A stretch of 64,000 nt of DNA from Mucilaginibacter corticis (lineage in GTDB: Bacteria > Bacteroidota > Bacteroidia > Sphingobacteriales > Sphingobacteriaceae), in contig NZ_VLPK01000001.1 in assembly GCF_007558865.1 (NCBI RefSeq), positions 1,116,001 through 1,180,000 of the forward strand. The letters are read 5' to 3'. Positions 3,321-51,088 of the stretch are shown piece by piece. Position 1 is the stretch's first letter. Every line of letters starts with the position of its first letter. The notes below the pieces were generated by a model, which worked only from the letters and a program-made list of their open reading frames with translations, was not told the DNA's origin and ran no database searches. Made by a program: the position numbers and the translations under genes.

Positions 3321-3324
3321 CACT

Positions 3325-3434
3325 GCTTATAGAGAAAGACGGAGGGATTAGACCCTGCGATGTCTTAGCAACCTGTTACTTAACAAGGTGCTACATTCTA
3401 CTCGGGCCGCTACAGCCACCCGGGACAGATAAGT
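3325..3434 (+). ncRNA. SAM-I (S-box) riboswitch
   Basis: S-adenosylmethionine-sensing leader RNA that controls methionine genes. The conserved core is clear: AGAG at the P1 junction, GGAGGG, the P2 kink-turn region GCGATGTCTTAGCAACC, then GGTGCTACATTC, a GC-rich P4 hairpin (CTCGGG ... CCCGGG) and the closing strand ATAAGT at about 3429-3434 that pairs with GCTTAT at 3325-3330. It lies directly downstream of a promoter and upstream of metH, as expected. The expression platform is not obvious: a weak GAAAGTC/GACTTTTC hairpin (3435-3461) and a T6 run at 3471-3476 follow, and ATAAGC at 3465-3470 could compete for the 5' strand of P1. Confidence 0.9.
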
Positions 3435-3480
3435 GAAAGTCAATACAACACCCGACTTTTCGAAATAAGCTTTTTTACAG

Positions 3481-44783: not shown

Positions 44784-46094
44784 TCAGGCATTCTTCAATA
44801 AATAATCCTTAAATCCTTCAAAATCTATCCCTAATTCAACCGATTGTTTATCTTTTGCCTGCAGGTCTTTCACTTGTGCGGGTACTTCAATATGGTCGGC
44901 AATTTTCTGCGGAAAAACGTCAGGGAATTTACAAGGGTGTGCAGTCGATAAAAAGATGCCGACTGTATCGTCAATGTGTATATCTTGCTGGTAATCTTTT
45001 AAAGCCTGCCAGGCAATAGCGGTATGCGGGCAAACCACATATTTGTAATGGTCGTAAACTGCGTTAATAGCGGCTAAAGTCTCGTCGTCATTAAAGCTGT
45101 AGCCGGTTATCAGTTTATTTAGCTGGCCTGCATCGTCTTTAAACAGATCAGCAATGCGTACCCAATTACTCGGGTTACCAACATCCATGGCGTTTGATAG
45201 GGTAGCTACCGATGGCTTAGGCTCATATACGCCATGCTTTAAAAACTGTGGTACGGTATCATTAGCATTAGTGGCTGCAATGAATTGACCTACGGGTAAA
45301 CCCATCTTCCAGGCCAGTAGGCCCGCGCCGATGTTACCGAAATTACCGCTCGGAACAGAAAACACTACCTGGCTTTTGCCCTGTTTAAGCGCTTGTGCAT
45401 AGGCATTAAAGTAATAAAAGGTCTGCGGGATCAATCGGGCTATATTGATAGAATTAGCTGACGTTAAACGGTATTTAGCGTTCAGTTCCGGGTCGGTAAA
45501 AGCCTGTTTAACCAATGCCTGGCAATCATCAAAAGTGCCATCGATCTCTAACGCGCGGATGTTTTGGCCGTTGGTGGTTAACTGCAACTCCTGTATATCG
45601 CTTACCTTTCCTTTTGGGTATAATATAGTAACACGGGTATTCGGTACACCCAAGAATCCCAATGCTACCGCGCCGCCCGTATCGCCTGATGTGGCTACCA
45701 ATACATCCAGTTGCTTTTCTCCGGCCTCTAAAAAGTAGCTCATTATGCGGCTCATAAACCTTGCACCAAAATCTTTAAAAGCTAAAGACGGGCCATGAAA
45801 AAGCTCGAGTACGTAAACATCTTCCTCCAGCTTAACAATGGGCGCATAAAAGTTAATGGCATCTTTAATTATCGCTTTCAGGTCATCTGCCGGGATATCA
45901 TCGCCTAAAAGATTCTGCGCGACATGAGATGCTATTTCGGGCAGGGTATAACTATCCAGGTTGTTGATGAACTTATCATCCAGGCGCGGGATCGTTACCG
46001 GCATGTACAAGCCTTTATCCTGCGGCATGCTGTTAAATACCGCCTCTTTAAAACTTACTCTTGATGATGTATTGTTGGTACTGTAGAATTTCAT
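44784..46094 (-). CDS. thrC: threonine synthase
   Basis: PLP enzyme that converts phosphohomoserine to threonine, the last step of the pathway. The 436-residue protein is of the fungal/enteric type with an N-terminal YSTNNTSSRVSFKEAVF block, QDKGLYMPVTIP, the PLP-binding Lys in GPSLAFKDFGARFMSR, DVLVATSGDTGGAVALGF, FSVPSGNFGNIGAGLLA and TAHPCKFPDVF. It is the last gene of the thrA-thrB-thrC operon, 187 bases after thrB across two intergenic repeats. Confidence 0.96.
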   Translation of the reverse strand: MKFYSTNNTSSRVSFKEAVFNSMPQDKGLYMPVTIPRLDDKFINNLDSYTLPEIASHVAQNLLGDDIPADDLKAIIKDAINFYAPIVKLEEDVYVLELFHGPSLAFKDFGARFMSRIMSYFLEAGEKQLDVLVATSGDTGGAVALGFLGVPNTRVTILYPKGKVSDIQELQLTTNGQNIRALEIDGTFDDCQALVKQAFTDPELNAKYRLTSANSINIARLIPQTFYYFNAYAQALKQGKSQVVFSVPSGNFGNIGAGLLAWKMGLPVGQFIAATNANDTVPQFLKHGVYEPKPSVATLSNAMDVGNPSNWVRIADLFKDDAGQLNKLITGYSFNDDETLAAINAVYDHYKYVVCPHTAIAWQALKDYQQDIHIDDTVGIFLSTAHPCKFPDVFPQKIADHIEVPAQVKDLQAKDKQSVELGIDFEGFKDYLLKNA

Positions 46095-46281: not shown

Positions 46282-47283
46282 TTATACCACCCTTGGCCCT
46301 GCATCATTGATCGGTGACACATAACCGTTTGACCCTATTTTAATACCCGTTAAATGCTGCTGCAGTTTTTGAGTGATGGCATGTGCGGTTGCTTCATCGC
46401 GCGTAAACGCGAATACGGAAGGGCCTGAGCCTGAAATGCCGAAACTTACCGCGCCAAGCTCCATGGCCATATCGCGCATTTTGTAAAAATCGGGTATCAG
46501 CATAGAACGGACCGGCTCAACCAGTACATCCTGCATACTGCGGCCTATCAGGTCAATATCGTTCATAAACAAACCGCTTACCAAGCCGGCAATATTGCCC
46601 CATTGGGTAACGGCATCCTTCATATTTATTTTTGTGCGGATGATCTGTCGGGCTTCGCGGGTGGGCACGTCAACATCCGGGAAAACAATGGCGCAATACA
46701 GGTCTTTTGGATGTGGCAGTCGCACTACATCAAGCGGCTCATAACTACGGATCAGTACAAATCCGCCAAACAGGGCCGGAGCTACGTTGTCCGCATGGCC
46801 ATGCCCGCAGGCCATCTCCTCGCCTTTCATGGCAAAAGGTAATTGATGTATCGGGTCGCTGGTATCGCCCAATAAAGTCTTGGCGGCAAACAAACCCGCA
46901 ACCGTACTTGCCGAACTGGAGCCTAACCCGCTGCCAATCGGCATTTTTTTATGCAGCTCGATATCTAAACCAAGGTCGGTACGGCCTATGCTTTCCAAGT
47001 AATGCTTAACGCTTACACTTACAGTGTTTTTAGCTGGGTCCATTGGCAGGCGGCCATCATCGCCGGTAATTTTACTGATGGTAATGCCAGGTTTGTTGGT
47101 TACCCGCATCACTACCTCATCGCCGGGCGCGTTAACTGCGAAACCCAGTACGTCAAACCCGCATACTACGTTGGCAACGGTTGCAGGGGCAAACACTGAA
47201 ACGGACGAACCAACGCCCCCCCCGCCCCCTAAAGGGGGTGCTAAATGTTGGGTGGGCTTTAAATCTTGTATATTATTTTCCAT
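46282..47283 (-). CDS. thrB: homoserine kinase
   Basis: GHMP-family kinase that makes O-phosphohomoserine for ThrC. Core motifs are SVFAPATVANVVCGFDVLGFA at the N-terminus (the family normally starts a few residues before this), the ATP loop MPIGSGLGSSSASTVAGLFA and the C-terminal GAVSFGISGSGPSVFAF. As annotated from the ATG at 47283 it is 333 residues, about 20 longer than expected: residues 10-25 (PTQHLAPPLGGGGGVG) are encoded by a CCCCCTAAAGGGGG repeat that has extended the N-terminus. thrA ends 44 bases upstream. Confidence 0.94.
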   Translation of the reverse strand: MENNIQDLKPTQHLAPPLGGGGGVGSSVSVFAPATVANVVCGFDVLGFAVNAPGDEVVMRVTNKPGITISKITGDDGRLPMDPAKNTVSVSVKHYLESIGRTDLGLDIELHKKMPIGSGLGSSSASTVAGLFAAKTLLGDTSDPIHQLPFAMKGEEMACGHGHADNVAPALFGGFVLIRSYEPLDVVRLPHPKDLYCAIVFPDVDVPTREARQIIRTKINMKDAVTQWGNIAGLVSGLFMNDIDLIGRSMQDVLVEPVRSMLIPDFYKMRDMAMELGAVSFGISGSGPSVFAFTRDEATAHAITQKLQQHLTGIKIGSNGYVSPINDAGPRVV

Positions 47284-47327: not shown

Positions 47328-49781
47328 TTAGTTTGCCCCTACATTTATTAAATCAGCAAATACACCCGCGGCGGTAACCTCGGCGCCTGCGCCGGGGCCT
47401 TTAATAACCAGTGGGCGTTCTTTATAACGATCGGTAGTGAATGATATGATATTGTCGCTACCCGATAACATATAAAAAGGATGGCTTTCATCTACCATTT
47501 CTAATGTGATGGATGCCTTACCATTTTCAAGCTTACCAATGTATCTTAAAACTTTACCTTCAGATTCGGCTTTGTTTTTCAAGTTGGCAAAGTGCGCGTC
47601 TTCAGCTATTAAGCTCTTATAAAAATCATCTACGCTTGCTGCATCCAAACATGCCTGTGGCAACATACTTTCAATAGATACGTCTGACGTTTCTAAGGCA
47701 TAACCTGCATCGCGGGCAAGGATCAGCATTTTACGCATAAAGTCTGTACCGCGTAAGTCGTCTCTCGGGTCGGGTTCGGTATAGCCTTTTTCCTGTGCCA
47801 GCTTTACAGTATCGTGGAAATTGGCATCGCCTTTAAAATTATTGAACAAGAAGGATATGGTGCCCGACAGGATAGCCTCAATTTTCTGCACCCTGTCGCC
47901 GCTGTTCATCAGGTCCTTTAATGTACGGATGATAGGCAGCCCTGCACCCACGTTGGTTTCGTAAAAGAAATCAACCCCGTGCTGGCGGGCGCTGTCCCTG
48001 AATGTTTTGTATTGCTGATAAGGTCCCGAATTGCCGATCTTATTACAGGTAACTATAGATATGGTCGACTTTAAAACCTGCTCATAAAAAGCTGTCGGCA
48101 CCGGGCTGGCGGTATTATCAATAAATACGCAGTTAGGCAGGTTCATGCTTTTCATTTTAGCGATGAATGCCGGCAGGTCGGCCTGGTCAGGCGCCTGGTC
48201 GAGCGTTTCTTCCCAGTTGTCTAAGGAAATACCATCGGCATTGAAAGCCATTTTACGGGTATTGCTGATGCCCGCAATTTTAACCTGGATGCCATTGTTT
48301 TCCTGCAAAAACGCGGCATGCCCGTTTAATTGCCTGAACAAAGTTTTACCGATATTGCCGGTGCCCAAACAAAATGCGTGCAGGGTTTTGGTAAGCTGCA
48401 CAAAAAAGGCATCGTGTACAGCGTTCAAGGCTTTTGCCAGATCGGTTGACGAAATGATAACCGAGATGTTATATTCTGACGACCCTTGTGCAATAGCCCT
48501 TACGTTAACACCGTTACGGCCTAACGAATGGAACAGTTTGCCGGATACGCCAGGAGTTTCCTTCATGTTCTCGCCCACCACGGCAAGGATGGCCAGATCT
48601 TTTTCTATTTCAACATGCTCCAATTTTTTGGCCAACAGTTCCAATTCAAACTCATGCTCTATTACCTGGCGGGCACGTTCGGTATCGCCGGGCTGTACGG
48701 CAAAGGTTATGCTATGTTCTGACGATGATTGTGTAATCAGTATCACGTTGATCTGCTCGCGGGCCAGTAAAGAGAACAGCCTACCGCTAAAGCCCGATTT
48801 ACCCACCATGCCGCTGCCTTCAACATTTAATATGCTGATATTATTGATAGACGAAATGCCTTTGATAGCTAGGTTTGACGGTTTACAATCATGCTGAATG
48901 ACCGTCCCCACAAATTCAGGCTCGAAAGTATTCTTGATAACGATAGGGATCTTCTTTAAAAACGCCGGGATCATAGTTGGCGGATAGATCACCTTGGCGC
49001 CAAAGTAAGATAGCTCCATGGCTTCTGTGTAAGTAAGCTCTGACAGGGAGAAGGCCTTTTTAACCATGCGCGGGTCGGCAGTCATCATGCCGTTAACATC
49101 GGTCCAGATCTGGATCTCTGACGCGTTAAGCGCCGCTCCGAATATGGCAGCGGTATAATCGCTGCCGCCACGACCCAAAGTAGTTATTTGCCCTGAATCA
49201 TTACTGCCGATAAAACCGGTAACAAACAGGATCTGATCTTTATTTTCATGATAAAGACCACAGATCAATTGCTCGGTCAGTTCGGTATTAACCTTAGCCT
49301 GGCCAAATGTGCTATCGGTCTTTATAACTTCAGATGCGTCGACAAAAACTGACGGAAAATATTGAGCCGCTATTTTACTGATCATCAGGGTTGAGCAGCG
49401 TTCGCCGTAACTGATCACCAGGTCGCGGGTTTTTTGAGTAAGCTCACGCAGTGTTAAAATACCCTGTAACAATTCTTCCAGGTGATTGAAGTTGATCTTT
49501 AAGCGGGTAAGGGCAGGGTTTTGATCGCGGATCTCGAGCAGGGTCTTTACCGTGTCGAAGTGGCGTTTCTCCAATTCGGCCAGTTGAGCGGCAAAATCAT
49601 TGCCTTTTGCGGCCTCTTCGGCCATCGCTATCAGCAGGTTAGTTACACCGCTCATGGCCGACAGCACCACTACAGGTTTATCAGCAGCGGATTGTTTTAC
49701 TTCATCTTTTAAGATGTTTAACAGGGTTTTAATACTTTGAGCCGAACCTACGGATGTCCCGCCAAATTTTAGAATCTTCAT
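47328..49781 (-). CDS. thrA: bifunctional aspartokinase / homoserine dehydrogenase I
   Basis: Catalyses the first and third steps of threonine synthesis from aspartate. The 817-residue protein has the N-terminal kinase domain (KILKFGGTSVGSAQSIKTL, SYGERCSTLMISKIA, LGRGGSDYTAAIFGAAL), two ACT regulatory regions (SILNVEGSGMVGKSGFSGRLF and LAILAVVGENMKETPGVSGKLF), and the dehydrogenase domain from about residue 465 (AFCLGTGNIGKTLFRQL, IVTCNKIGNSG, YETNVGAGLPIIRTL, GAGAEVTAAGVFADLI). Length and order match E. coli ThrA. It heads the thrABC operon and is controlled by the attenuator upstream. Confidence 0.97.
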   Translation of the reverse strand: MKILKFGGTSVGSAQSIKTLLNILKDEVKQSAADKPVVVLSAMSGVTNLLIAMAEEAAKGNDFAAQLAELEKRHFDTVKTLLEIRDQNPALTRLKINFNHLEELLQGILTLRELTQKTRDLVISYGERCSTLMISKIAAQYFPSVFVDASEVIKTDSTFGQAKVNTELTEQLICGLYHENKDQILFVTGFIGSNDSGQITTLGRGGSDYTAAIFGAALNASEIQIWTDVNGMMTADPRMVKKAFSLSELTYTEAMELSYFGAKVIYPPTMIPAFLKKIPIVIKNTFEPEFVGTVIQHDCKPSNLAIKGISSINNISILNVEGSGMVGKSGFSGRLFSLLAREQINVILITQSSSEHSITFAVQPGDTERARQVIEHEFELELLAKKLEHVEIEKDLAILAVVGENMKETPGVSGKLFHSLGRNGVNVRAIAQGSSEYNISVIISSTDLAKALNAVHDAFFVQLTKTLHAFCLGTGNIGKTLFRQLNGHAAFLQENNGIQVKIAGISNTRKMAFNADGISLDNWEETLDQAPDQADLPAFIAKMKSMNLPNCVFIDNTASPVPTAFYEQVLKSTISIVTCNKIGNSGPYQQYKTFRDSARQHGVDFFYETNVGAGLPIIRTLKDLMNSGDRVQKIEAILSGTISFLFNNFKGDANFHDTVKLAQEKGYTEPDPRDDLRGTDFMRKMLILARDAGYALETSDVSIESMLPQACLDAASVDDFYKSLIAEDAHFANLKNKAESEGKVLRYIGKLENGKASITLEMVDESHPFYMLSGSDNIISFTTDRYKERPLVIKGPGAGAEVTAAGVFADLINVGAN

Positions 49782-49796
49782 TAGTAAGTATATTTA

Positions 49797-49832
49797 AAAC
49801 AAAACGCCTTCCTCTTTGTGGAGGAAGGCGTT
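49797..49832 (-). terminator. attenuator terminator upstream of thrA
   Basis: On the minus strand a perfect 12-bp stem AACGCCTTCCTC/GAGGAAGGCGTT (49832-49821 with 49814-49803), 6-base loop, followed by TTGTTTT. It lies 16 bases upstream of the thrA start, after the leader peptide. Its 5' arm includes CTTCCTCC (49827-49820), which is complementary to the end of the leader reading frame. Confidence 0.92.
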
Positions 49833-49867
49833 CATGTGGGTTTTCTTTATGTTTTTATACCATACGA

Positions 49868-49933
49868 CTATCTTCCTCCGCGGCTTTTGCCGGTGGTTGT
49901 AATCGTTGTGGTGGTTGTGTTTATCAGTTTCAT
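49868..49933 (-). CDS. thrL: thr operon leader peptide
   Basis: A 21-codon reading frame starting MKLINTTTTTITTTGKS and ending Arg-Gly-Gly-Arg-stop, with eight Thr codons and two Ile codons. It lies between a possible promoter and the attenuator hairpin of thrA, so its job is to be translated, not to make a useful protein. Its last codons (GGAGGAAG, 49879-49872) can pair perfectly with the 5' arm of the terminator. Stalling at Thr codons when threonyl-tRNA is scarce would leave this segment free to form the antiterminator; reaching the stop codon would cover it and let the terminator form. The design parallels the E. coli thr leader, which also combines Thr and Ile codons. Confidence 0.88.
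   Translation of the reverse strand: MKLINTTTTTITTTGKSRGGR
49872..49879 (-). promoter_or_regulatory. antiterminator strand of the thr attenuator
   Basis: GGAGGAAG in the last leader codons pairs over all 8 bases with CTTCCTCC at 49827-49820, in the terminator's 5' arm. Pairing here excludes the terminator. Confidence 0.75.
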
Positions 49934-49977
49934 ATAATGTCTGTAAAGTAAGTAGATATATTTTTAATAAGCAAGTA

Positions 49978-49985
49978 CAAAATAA
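49978..49985 (-). promoter_or_regulatory. possible -7 box of the thr operon
   Basis: TTATTTTG on the minus strand, one mismatch from TAnnTTTG, about 45 bases before the leader peptide ATG. No good -33 TTG is seen, so this is weak. Confidence 0.35.
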
Positions 49986-50023: not shown

Positions 50024-51088
50024 CTAATGTTGTACTACTGCAATGCCTACTCCCGTCGAAATTTTTGAGGATAGCTGGGTAAGCGTGTTATTTTTCCAAT
50101 ACACGGCGTATGTGTCCGAATAGCCTTTTGTGCCGGCTATATAGATGTTATTGTTATTTATAGTAAGCGCCGTCGCAGTAAATTGCTGCGTACCGTCGGT
50201 TATTTTATTAGCGATACCGTTTTTCCAGTATATGGCAAAGTAATCATAATAGCCTGTGGCGTATACATCAGATCCATTAATGGTTATGCTATTTGCTTCA
50301 GACGATAAGTTTTGATCGGTCATTAACGGAATACTCGCGCCATTTTTCCAATAAGTAGCCATTACCTGGTCGCCGGCCTTGTTTTGAATATTACCGGTAA
50401 TATAAACGTCGGTGCCTGCTACGCCGATAGCAACATTACGCGGATAATACGGAACAGGGCTGCCGGGTAAATTTGACGCAACGGATACCGGTACTTTATT
50501 TTTCCAATAAGTAGCCGTTTGGAAACCGCCGGCCAAGCCAACATTGCCTGACAGGTATACGTCAGTCCCTGAAACTGCTATGCCGCTTATATAATTACAT
50601 GATTGATCAGTAAATATCACCGGCGTTCCGTTTTTCCAATAAGCGGGATGATATAATGAGACATCGTAATTCATGCCGCCAATATAAATATCTTGCCCAC
50701 TAATGGTAATGGCATTTGCCTCGGTACAATTGGGTAAGTGATTGGGTACCCCGTTTTTCCAGTAAGTGGCAACATTGTCAACCATGCCTACTATGTAAAC
50801 ATCAGTATCCTTAACGGCTATGGCATTGGTAAACGAATATAAGGTGCTATCCGCCAGTAAATGAACAACCCCATTTTTCCAATAAGCGGCAACAGTTACA
50901 CTCTTGGTGGTAGTGATGGTGCCGGCTACATAGATATCTGTACCCGTTGGTGTAACTACGGGTGGCGTAACAACAGGTGGTGTAACTACCGGCGGGGTAG
51001 CGGTTGTATTTTGCTTGTTATCGGTTTTTTTGCAAGCTGTAAGGGCCGCAATAGCAATAATAAAAATCAGGGGCTTTTTAAAATGCAT
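50024..51088 (-). CDS. lipoprotein with seven YWKNG repeats, probable seven-bladed beta-propeller
   Basis: From the ATG at 51088 (354 residues) there is a lipoprotein signal (HFKKPLIFIIAIAALTAC), a linker with three copies of PPVVT, and then seven repeats of 40-52 residues. Each repeat has a (D/N)-(I/V)-Y-x-x-G strand and a strand ending in YWKNG or YWKNx; counting from 51097, the YWKN positions are 72, 112, 153, 197, 249, 290 and 333. The last residues (TGVGIAVVQH) resemble the strand that precedes the DVY motif, so the ring could close by a shared final blade. I do not recognise a named function; a surface binding role is inference. It faces the divergent OMPLA-like gene. Confidence 0.82.
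   Translation of the reverse strand: MHFKKPLIFIIAIAALTACKKTDNKQNTTATPPVVTPPVVTPPVVTPTGTDIYVAGTITTTKSVTVAAYWKNGVVHLLADSTLYSFTNAIAVKDTDVYIVGMVDNVATYWKNGVPNHLPNCTEANAITISGQDIYIGGMNYDVSLYHPAYWKNGTPVIFTDQSCNYISGIAVSGTDVYLSGNVGLAGGFQTATYWKNKVPVSVASNLPGSPVPYYPRNVAIGVAGTDVYITGNIQNKAGDQVMATYWKNGASIPLMTDQNLSSEANSITINGSDVYATGYYDYFAIYWKNGIANKITDGTQQFTATALTINNNNIYIAGTKGYSDTYAVYWKNNTLTQLSSKISTGVGIAVVQH

What the first reader, a model, noticed from the sequence alone, without database searches (positions are those of the whole stretch)
49797..49985. Ribosome-controlled attenuator with a threonine leader peptide before thrA
Between a weak promoter and thrA, the minus strand encodes a 21-codon peptide with eight Thr and two Ile codons (starting MKLINTTTTTITTTG). 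A perfect 12-bp terminator with a T tract lies just before thrA. The final leader codons (GGAGGAAG) pair over all 8 bases with CTTCCTCC in the terminator's 5' arm, so a ribosome stalled on Thr codons would permit the antiterminator and one reaching the stop codon would block it. Such leaders are well described in enteric bacteria; in a Bacteroidota genome this one would be missed by gene callers because of its length.
Basis: partly seen in the sequence, partly recalled or inferred. Interest (0 to 1): 0.82.

Follow-up and report, generated by a model that had tools for sequence, protein, structure and literature searches.

The report
Threonine-sensing attenuator before Mucilaginibacter thrABC
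In front of the threonine-making genes of a Mucilaginibacter-like bacterium lies a short reading frame packed with threonine codons, followed by a terminator-like repeat and two rival predicted hairpins that recur in nearly all relatives examined in its family; together they likely let a ribosome short of threonine switch the genes on, the same principle as in E. coli but in a distant phylum.

Summary
On the minus strand, 49868-49933 encodes MKLINTTTTTITTTGKSRGGR (8 Thr, 2 Ile); a 12-bp inverted repeat with a T tract (49832-49796) ends 14 nt before thrA of a thrA-thrB-thrC cluster; GGAGGAAG (49879-49872) is complementary to CTTCCTCC (49827-49820). So the 1:2, 2:3 and 3:4 structures of a classical attenuator can all be drawn, each more stable than any of 200 shuffles.

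A matching leader and terminator precede thrA in 92 of 95 loci taken from the family by a lenient, partly by-eye rule (74 of 90 by an automatic one). The terminator covaries strongly. In the clearest case, a clade with a GTCCCGA arm, the leader strand has changed to match; smaller classes are less clear. The G-rich strand occurs in all three reading frames, most often 12 nt after the last Thr codon. It is a new member of a known kind (thrL-type attenuation), below Rfam's Thr_leader cut-off. No expression data. In passing: seven other families show another Thr-leader design, a small hairpin at the leader stop codon, nearly always without an intrinsic terminator.

The parts
49943..49974 (-). Putative promoter: TTG (49974-49972) and TTACTTTAC (49951-49943), Bacteroidota -33/-7 type
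   Evidence: Sequence. A TAN1-2TTT[GA] box ends 5-25 nt before the leader start in 57 of 90 family loci, against 9.4 from shuffles. The -33/-7 reading is recalled knowledge; no transcription start was measured.
49868..49933 (-). Leader ORF MKLINTTTTTITTTGKSRGGR*, 8 Thr and 2 Ile codons; its Thr run is segment 1
   Evidence: Sequence. Thr/Ile-rich ORF plus terminator in 74 of 90 family loci by automatic rule; Thr/Ile ORF in 78 of 79 named-record loci (many are the same genomes).
49859..49879 (-). Segment 2: GGAGGAAG (last leader codons) plus TCGTATGGT just after the stop codon
   Evidence: Antiterminator fold -18.5 kcal/mol, z -5.3. In 90 loci the segment has mean z -4.4, 83 of 90 below -2.
49859..49912 (-). 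Predicted 1:2 (protector) hairpin between the Thr codons and segment 2
   Evidence: Leader up to the terminator: -18.9 kcal/mol, z -3.6. Mean z -2.4 in 91 loci, 57 of 91 below -2.
49820..49839 (-). Segment 3: CCACATGA (49839-49832) plus CTTCCTCC (49827-49820), partner of segment 2 and 5' arm of the terminator
   Evidence: Sequence, folds, swap test.
49796..49833 (-). Intrinsic terminator (3:4): 12-13 bp stem, loop CACAAA, T tract
   Evidence: -21.9 kcal/mol, z -6.2. In 69 aligned loci 96.6% of cells paired, 8 of 12 pairs with changes on both sides.
47328..49781 (-). thrA, bifunctional aspartate kinase/homoserine dehydrogenase
   Evidence: NCBIfam NF006959, 1047 bits, cut-off 726
46282..47283 (-). 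thrB, homoserine kinase
   Evidence: NCBIfam NF002288 and TIGR00191 above cut-off
44784..46094 (-). thrC, threonine synthase
   Evidence: NCBIfam TIGR00260 above cut-off

Best explanation
The stretch 49796-49974 is most likely a ribosome-controlled transcription attenuator, in which translation of a threonine-rich leader peptide is predicted to decide whether RNA polymerase stops at a terminator or goes on into thrA, thrB and thrC. Shown in the sequence: leader ORF, inverted repeats, T tract, gene order and their recurrence in relatives. Predicted from folding: three exclusive structures, 1:2 (Thr codons with segment 2), 2:3 (GGAGGAAG...TCGTATGG with CCACATGA...CTTCCTCC, the antiterminator) and 3:4 (terminator). 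Inferred: when charged Thr-tRNA is scarce, a ribosome stalled on the Thr run keeps segment 1 from pairing but leaves segment 2 free, 2:3 forms while segment 3 is being made, and transcription continues. When threonine is ample the ribosome reaches the stop codon and covers segment 2, so 3:4 forms and transcription ends. Without translation 1:2 would tie up segment 2 and favour termination; since 2:3 is computed to be the better fold once segment 3 exists, this step is the least certain. Ile codons (two here, more in relatives) would add isoleucine sensitivity. All steps in the cell are untested.
For: Leader plus terminator before thrA in 92 of 95 family loci by a lenient rule, 74 of 90 by an automatic one; strict terminator rule 85 of 92. 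Named records: of 79 of 80 loci with enough upstream DNA, 78 Thr/Ile ORF, 77 G-rich strand, 73 terminator with a CCTTCC or GTCCC arm (overlaps the loci). Terminator covariation: 77 cells with both sides changed against 23.2 in shuffles. Swap test: leaders of the 71 CCTTCCTC loci score 21.5 on their own arms and 11.8 on GTCCCGA arms; leaders of the 6 GTCCCGA loci score 15.9 on their own and 12.3 on CCTTCCTC. Tail plus arm fold with at least 6 arm bases paired to the tail in 91 of 92 loci, against 46% of shuffled tails. G-rich strand in frames 0, 1, 2 in 51, 22 and 18 of 91 loci; 7-16 nt after the last Thr codon in 76 of 91, exactly 12 in 41. Modelled stalls at codons 8, 12 and 14 give 2:3 in RNA made as far as the loop; at the stop codon none. 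Upstream gene has a homologue in 4 of 76 loci.
Against: No transcript, ribosome-profiling or starvation data. In the window alone the 8-bp pairing has p 0.028. On the alignment the antiterminator is weak: 82.8% of cells paired against 79.0 shuffled (0/500), 11 cells changed on both sides against 5.9 (5/500), but only 2 of 8 pairs with such changes, fewer than shuffles (3.2; 487/500); the G-rich block is out of register in some genera there. In the swap table the own arm scores best in only 2 of 7 named classes, the two largest; CCTTCCG (4 loci), CCTTCCCC (2), GCCCCC (2), CTTCTCTC (2) and CTTCCCTC (1) score higher on some other class, and the 6 GTCCCGA loci are one genus. The second helix of 2:3 passes a 5% shuffle test in 21 of 90 loci. 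Thr-run to segment-2 pairing: 90 of 90 loci, but 70.2 of 90 with shuffled tails; codon-order shuffles: 14 of 91 at or below 5%. With the whole terminator made, 3:4 is the best fold in the stalled states too, so control would have to be kinetic. RF00506 scores 26.2 bits (cut-off 55).
Confidence: 0.88

Rival explanations
1. The hairpin is an ordinary terminator, of the upstream gene or of stray transcription, and the Thr-rich ORF has no part in controlling it.
For: An ORF on the same strand ends at 50024, about 190 nt upstream; the terminator is strong by itself.
Against: The upstream gene has a homologue in only 4 of 76 related loci while ORF, G-rich strand and terminator stay together in most; in the two largest classes leader strand and terminator arm match each other best.
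Confidence: 0.05
2. The leader RNA binds threonine or a regulatory protein directly (riboswitch-like), and the reading frame is incidental.
For: Stable recurrent RNA structures.
Against: The Thr/Ile codon run is the common feature of the leaders while the G-rich strand shifts frame and sequence; no Rfam family reaches its cut-off here.
Confidence: 0.03
3. The leader works at translation: ribosome stalling or re-initiation, perhaps through the small ATG GTA TAA after the stop codon, changes thrA translation rather than transcription.
For: ATGGTNTAA follows the leader stop in many relatives; leader genes close to structural genes in Bacteroidetes are discussed as re-initiation sites (PMC4833913, passages seen).
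Against: The mini-ORF is not kept (ATGTTGTAA, TTGTATAG in other genera) and may be explained by pairing (modest support); a strong intrinsic terminator lies between it and thrA.
Confidence: 0.04

Closest known systems
E. coli/enteric thr operon attenuator (thrL; Rfam RF00506 Thr_leader)
   Same: Thr- and Ile-rich short leader ORF, terminator just before thrA of thrABC, exclusive 1:2, 2:3 and 3:4 pairings (E. coli details recalled; one search shows the RF00506 consensus aligned to the window).
   Different: 26.2 bits, below the RF00506 cut-off of 55; other terminator and antiterminator sequences, Bacteroidota-type promoter-like box. Common descent was not tested.
Attenuators predicted for amino acid operons in Bacteroidetes/Chlorobi by comparative genomics (Vitreschak et al. 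2004; Lopatovskaya et al. 2010)
   Same: Same mechanism class in the same phylum, as I recall the 2004 abstract; the 2010 title was seen in a reference list.
   Different: Neither text is held (identifiers of the 2004 paper recalled); which genes and species they list could not be checked.
Bacteroid-trp motif (RF01692) and leader-peptide candidates in Flavobacterium psychrophilum and Bacteroides thetaiotaomicron
   Same: Cis-regulatory RNA or leader-peptide attenuation proposed in Bacteroidota (PMC2864571, table row; PMC9723704, section 19; PMC7366714, passage).
   Different: The passages seen name other genes or none; none mentions a Thr leader at thrA. Their supplements were not seen.

Membership tests
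Ribosome-mediated transcription attenuator of an amino acid operon (thrL type) | Short leader ORF with a run of codons for the operon's product | tested here: met
   8 of 21 codons Thr; recurrent
Ribosome-mediated transcription attenuator of an amino acid operon (thrL type) | Intrinsic terminator between leader and the first gene of the cognate operon | tested here: met
Ribosome-mediated transcription attenuator of an amino acid operon (thrL type) | Antiterminator strand that excludes the terminator | tested here: met
   Exact 8-base complement; z -5.3 in the window, mean -4.4 in 90 loci
Ribosome-mediated transcription attenuator of an amino acid operon (thrL type) | Antiterminator kept by compensatory change | tested here: inconclusive
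   For: two largest swap classes. Against: five smaller classes do not follow; alignment count weak
Ribosome-mediated transcription attenuator of an amino acid operon (thrL type) | Protector (1:2) hairpin between control codons and the antiterminator strand | tested here: inconclusive
   z -3.6 in window, mean -2.4 in 91 loci, but pair counts little above shuffles
Ribosome-mediated transcription attenuator of an amino acid operon (thrL type) | Spacing such that a ribosome stalled on control codons frees, and one at the stop covers, the antiterminator strand | tested here: met
Ribosome-mediated transcription attenuator of an amino acid operon (thrL type) | Leader translated; termination relieved by starvation for the amino acid | not testable with these tools
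Rfam RF00506 Thr_leader | Score at or above the gathering cut-off (55 bits) | tested here: not met
   26.2 bits, E 0.0035 in a 211-base search; not listed in the whole-window search at cut-off

The most novel reading that the evidence does not exclude
Bacteroidota hold two unrelated Thr-leader designs in front of thrA. The window's family uses a classical four-segment attenuator. At least seven other families use a second kind of ribosome sensor: the Thr/Ile run ends inside a small conserved hairpin (ACCCC-loop-GGGGT, or ACGGG-loop-CCCGT) that holds the leader stop codon in or next to it, usually followed by CATAT and by no intrinsic terminator. Leader ribosomes there would control thrA by a route without an intrinsic terminator, for instance Rho or a pause that the stalled ribosome prevents.
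Probability: 0.4. Interest if true: 0.7.

Novelty: new member of a known kind. Interest (0 to 1): 0.42.

Why it matters
It gives a family-wide, sequence-supported case of classical ribosome-mediated attenuation in Bacteroidota, with named Mucilaginibacter species in which it can be tested. Such control needs transcription and translation to be coupled closely enough for a leader ribosome to steer RNA polymerase (established knowledge), and these leaders make that testable in this phylum with a simple reporter. The G-rich strand moving through all three reading frames while Thr codons and spacing are kept points to selection on RNA rather than on the peptide's end. The contrast with a Thr leader that mostly lacks a terminator in other families raises the question of how one input, uncharged Thr-tRNA, is read out in two ways.

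Tried and rejected
Tried, little gained: Rfam at gathering cut-off on the window and at relaxed cut-off on 20 loci: nothing at cut-off for these leaders; RF00506 weak in some class-1 loci. RF00506 in the own genome (150 of 931 candidates scored) gave four sub-threshold places, none at the window's leader; not examined. Covariation of the antiterminator on the 69-row alignment was weak; the swap test does not use that alignment; both are reported. RNAalifold on all 69 nascent leaders gave no structure (energy 0), probably because the G-rich block is out of register between genera; within three subsets it gives the antiterminator. RNAalifold on 27 class-2 leaders gave almost nothing, so class 2 rests on the stem test with mononucleotide shuffles.

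Rejected: terminator of the upstream gene; riboswitch; a mini-ORF ATGGTATAA (not kept). Resemblance of the peptide to E. coli thrL is recalled and was not tested for common descent.

Rows dropped or chosen: of 95 family loci, L139 and L141 (no leader seen) and L140 (class 2) were left out of class-1 counts, leaving 92. One search looked at 90 of the 95 (five were not yet oriented): 74 passed the automatic rule, 15 had no accepted ORF and were read by eye (most show a Thr/Ile run, some with few Thr codons or no ATG start), and L124 had no hairpin by the rule (seen). The terminator words were written after seeing the sequences; six family loci that failed the T-run rule were added back by eye. 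The Thr run is the best 12-codon window and so always returns something; the G-rich strand was found by a list of alternative motifs, which can shift its start by a base. One search aligned 69 of the 86 regions. Not all family hits were fetched. Some gene starts outside the family are doubtful (for example L077).

Literature: ten searches. In the listings seen, which were cut, no paper is about a Thr leader in Bacteroidota; most subscription papers are not held, so this is no proof of absence.

Full report
What is there. The minus strand of 49796-49974 carries, in order, a Bacteroidota-type promoter-like pair (TTG 49974-49972, TTACTTTAC 49951-49943), a 21-codon ORF at 49933-49868 (MKLINTTTTTITTTGKSRGGR, 8 Thr, 2 Ile), and an inverted repeat of 12 perfect pairs with a T tract (49832-49796) ending 14 nt before the thrA start at 49781. 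thrA, thrB and thrC follow on the same strand and pass NCBIfam cut-offs. GGAGGAAG in the last codons is exactly complementary to CTTCCTCC in the terminator's 5' arm.

Chance. The terminator (-21.9 kcal/mol) has z -6.2, the segment from GGAGGAAG to the terminator loop (-18.5) z -5.3, and the leader before the terminator (-18.9) z -3.6; no shuffle of 200 did as well in any case. The 8-base match alone is reached by 0.028 of 500 shuffled tails, so by itself it would not convince.

Three structures. Folding RNA only as far as the terminator loop gives the antiterminator as the best structure, and it can be longer than described: inside GGAGGAAG/CTTCCTCC a second helix TCGTATGG/CCACATGA forms. Before segment 3 exists, the best fold pairs the Thr codons with segment 2, like the 1:2 hairpin of classical attenuators. 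I modelled a ribosome by blocking all RNA up to 11 nt past the A-site codon. With Thr codon 8, 12 or 14 (the last) in the A site, GGAGGAAG is free and RNA made to the loop folds as antiterminator; with the stop codon there it is covered and only the terminator can form. Once the whole terminator is made it is the best fold in the stalled states too, so control must be kinetic, as in known attenuators (recalled).

Comparison in the family. 95 thrA loci of the family were taken: 31 from the window's genus and 64 from other genera. By a lenient rule, partly by eye, 92 carry the element; L139 and L141 show no such leader and L140 has another kind. An automatic rule accepted 74 of 90; a strict terminator rule accepts 85 of 92. 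Names come from one scan of named records: the best hit is Mucilaginibacter sp. UR6-11 at 92% thrA identity, the same stretch as L006 of the window's genus. Of 79 of these 80 loci with enough upstream DNA, 78 have a Thr/Ile ORF (29 with TTG, 4 with GTG start), 77 a G-rich strand and 73 a terminator with a CCTTCC or GTCCC arm; many are the same genomes as. The gene upstream of the leader is not shared: 4 of 76 loci have a homologue, at 35-36% identity. A promoter-like box ends 5-25 nt before the leader start in 57 of 90 loci (9.4 in shuffles).

Covariation. On 69 aligned loci the terminator keeps 96.6% of cells paired, with 77 cells changed on both sides (23.2 in shuffles) and 8 of 12 pairs with such changes (5.0). 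The antiterminator on the same alignment is weaker: 82.8% of cells paired against 79.0 (0/500 shuffles), 11 cells changed on both sides against 5.9 (5/500), but 2 of 8 pairs with such changes against 3.2; the G-rich block is out of register in some genera there. The swap test does not use that alignment. Leaders of 71 CCTTCCTC loci score 21.5 on their own arms and 11.8 on GTCCCGA arms; leaders of 6 GTCCCGA loci, all one genus, carry CGGGGC or CGGGAC and score 15.9 on their own arms and 12.3 on CCTTCCTC. The other five named classes do not put their own arm first: CTTCTCTC (2 loci) 19.0 own, 21.5 on CTTCCCTC, 14.7 on CCTTCCTC; GCCCCC (2) 16.0 own, 18.2 on CCTTCCCC; CCTTCCG (4) 16.9 own, 19.4 on CCTTCCTC; CCTTCCCC (2) 15.5 own, 21.4 on CCTTCCTC; CTTCCCTC (1) 14.5 own, 16.4 on GTCCCGA. 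So matched change is well supported for one switch and suggestive elsewhere. Folding supports the pairing more widely: tail plus arm pair in 91 of 92 loci (46% of shuffled tails), and the segment has mean z -4.4 in 90 loci, 83 below -2. The second helix is weaker: 21 of 90 loci pass a 5% shuffle test.

What recurs hints at the mechanism. The G-rich strand lies in frame 0, 1 or 2 of the leader in 51, 22 and 18 of 91 loci, so peptide ends differ (GGR, RRK, EEG) while RNA stays. It begins 7-16 nt after the last Thr codon in 76 of 91 and exactly 12 nt after it in 41, about the distance from the A site to a ribosome's front edge (recalled). From the best 12-codon window to the stop, leaders average 6.0 Thr and 4.0 Ile; 81 of 92 have at least two Ile. 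Support for the 1:2 hairpin is moderate: mean z -2.4 in 91 loci, but pair counts are 90 of 90 against 70.2 of 90 in shuffled tails, and codon-order shuffles give 14 of 91 at or below 5%.

What it is. A ribosome-mediated attenuator of the thrL type: codon run, terminator, antiterminator strand and spacing are met; matched change of the antiterminator and the 1:2 hairpin are inconclusive; behaviour in the cell is untested. It is not a member of Rfam RF00506 by score (26.2 against 55). Attenuation in Bacteroidetes was, as I recall the abstract, predicted by Vitreschak et al. in 2004 (not held). Naville and Gautheret (PMC2965389, passages; [quoted passage not shown] A flavobacterial transcriptome paper reports strong clues for leader-peptide attenuation before amino acid operons (PMC9723704, section 19), and a Bacteroides map notes sORFs reminiscent of leader peptides (PMC7366714, passage).

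A second design. Among 82 loci outside the family plus L140, 28 of 83 pass a rule for a Thr/Ile run ending inside a small hairpin (0.41 expected from shuffles, at most 3 in 100); the same rule is met by 1 of 92 class-1 loci. They fall in seven other families and one genus of the window's own. The stem is ACCCC/GGGGT in 21, the inverted ACGGG/CCCGT in 4, ACCCG/AGGGT in 2; in L156 the rule picked another hairpin. CATAT follows within 24 nt in 20 of 28, and a strict intrinsic terminator is found in 1 of 28, against 85 of 92 in the window's family. The stop codon lies in or next to the hairpin. A plain pattern search hit 14 of 99 genomes of the phylum, 8 of them at thrA by coordinates; the other 6 were not examined, and the reversed control pattern hit 3. 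A covariance model of 23 loci matches 14 of 295 genomes of the class, once each. Thirteen of the 14 lie just upstream of an aspartate kinase gene, ten by the coordinates and three by the start of the downstream ORF read by eye; the weakest (G208) does not. Nine of the 14 were in the model; of the five others, four lie at such a gene. How this design works is open; it is put forward as the novel case, not as the finding.

Noticed in passing
L047, L050, L058-L060, L070, L075, L079, L081, L140, L151-L154, L157-L160, L164-L166, L168, L170 (upstream of thrA): Second Thr-leader design: Thr/Ile run ending in a small ACCCC-GGGGT type hairpin around the leader stop codon, usually then CATAT, no strict intrinsic terminator in these; no Rfam match at cut-off in those scanned.
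   Followed up: partly
L046, L055, L056, L074: Same position but with the stem turned round (ACGGG...CCCGT, stop codon in the loop), a swap of the whole stem.
   Followed up: partly
L040 (G168, family f36): thrA 63% identical to the window's, while the other listed genomes outside the family give 52% or less; a CCTTCCTCC terminator of the window's type but a degenerate Thr run; possible horizontal transfer of the operon.
   Followed up: no
window 3324-3435 (+): SAM riboswitch (RF00162, 68.2 bits, cut-off 44.4).
   Followed up: no
window 46282-47283 (-): thrB starts with an unusual APPLGGGGGVGSS stretch before the homoserine kinase domain begins near residue 28-30; perhaps an inserted repeat, or a wrongly placed start.
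   Followed up: no
L001-L004 (own genome): Four sub-threshold RF00506 matches (32-36 bits) elsewhere in the genome; not examined, may be chance.
   Followed up: no
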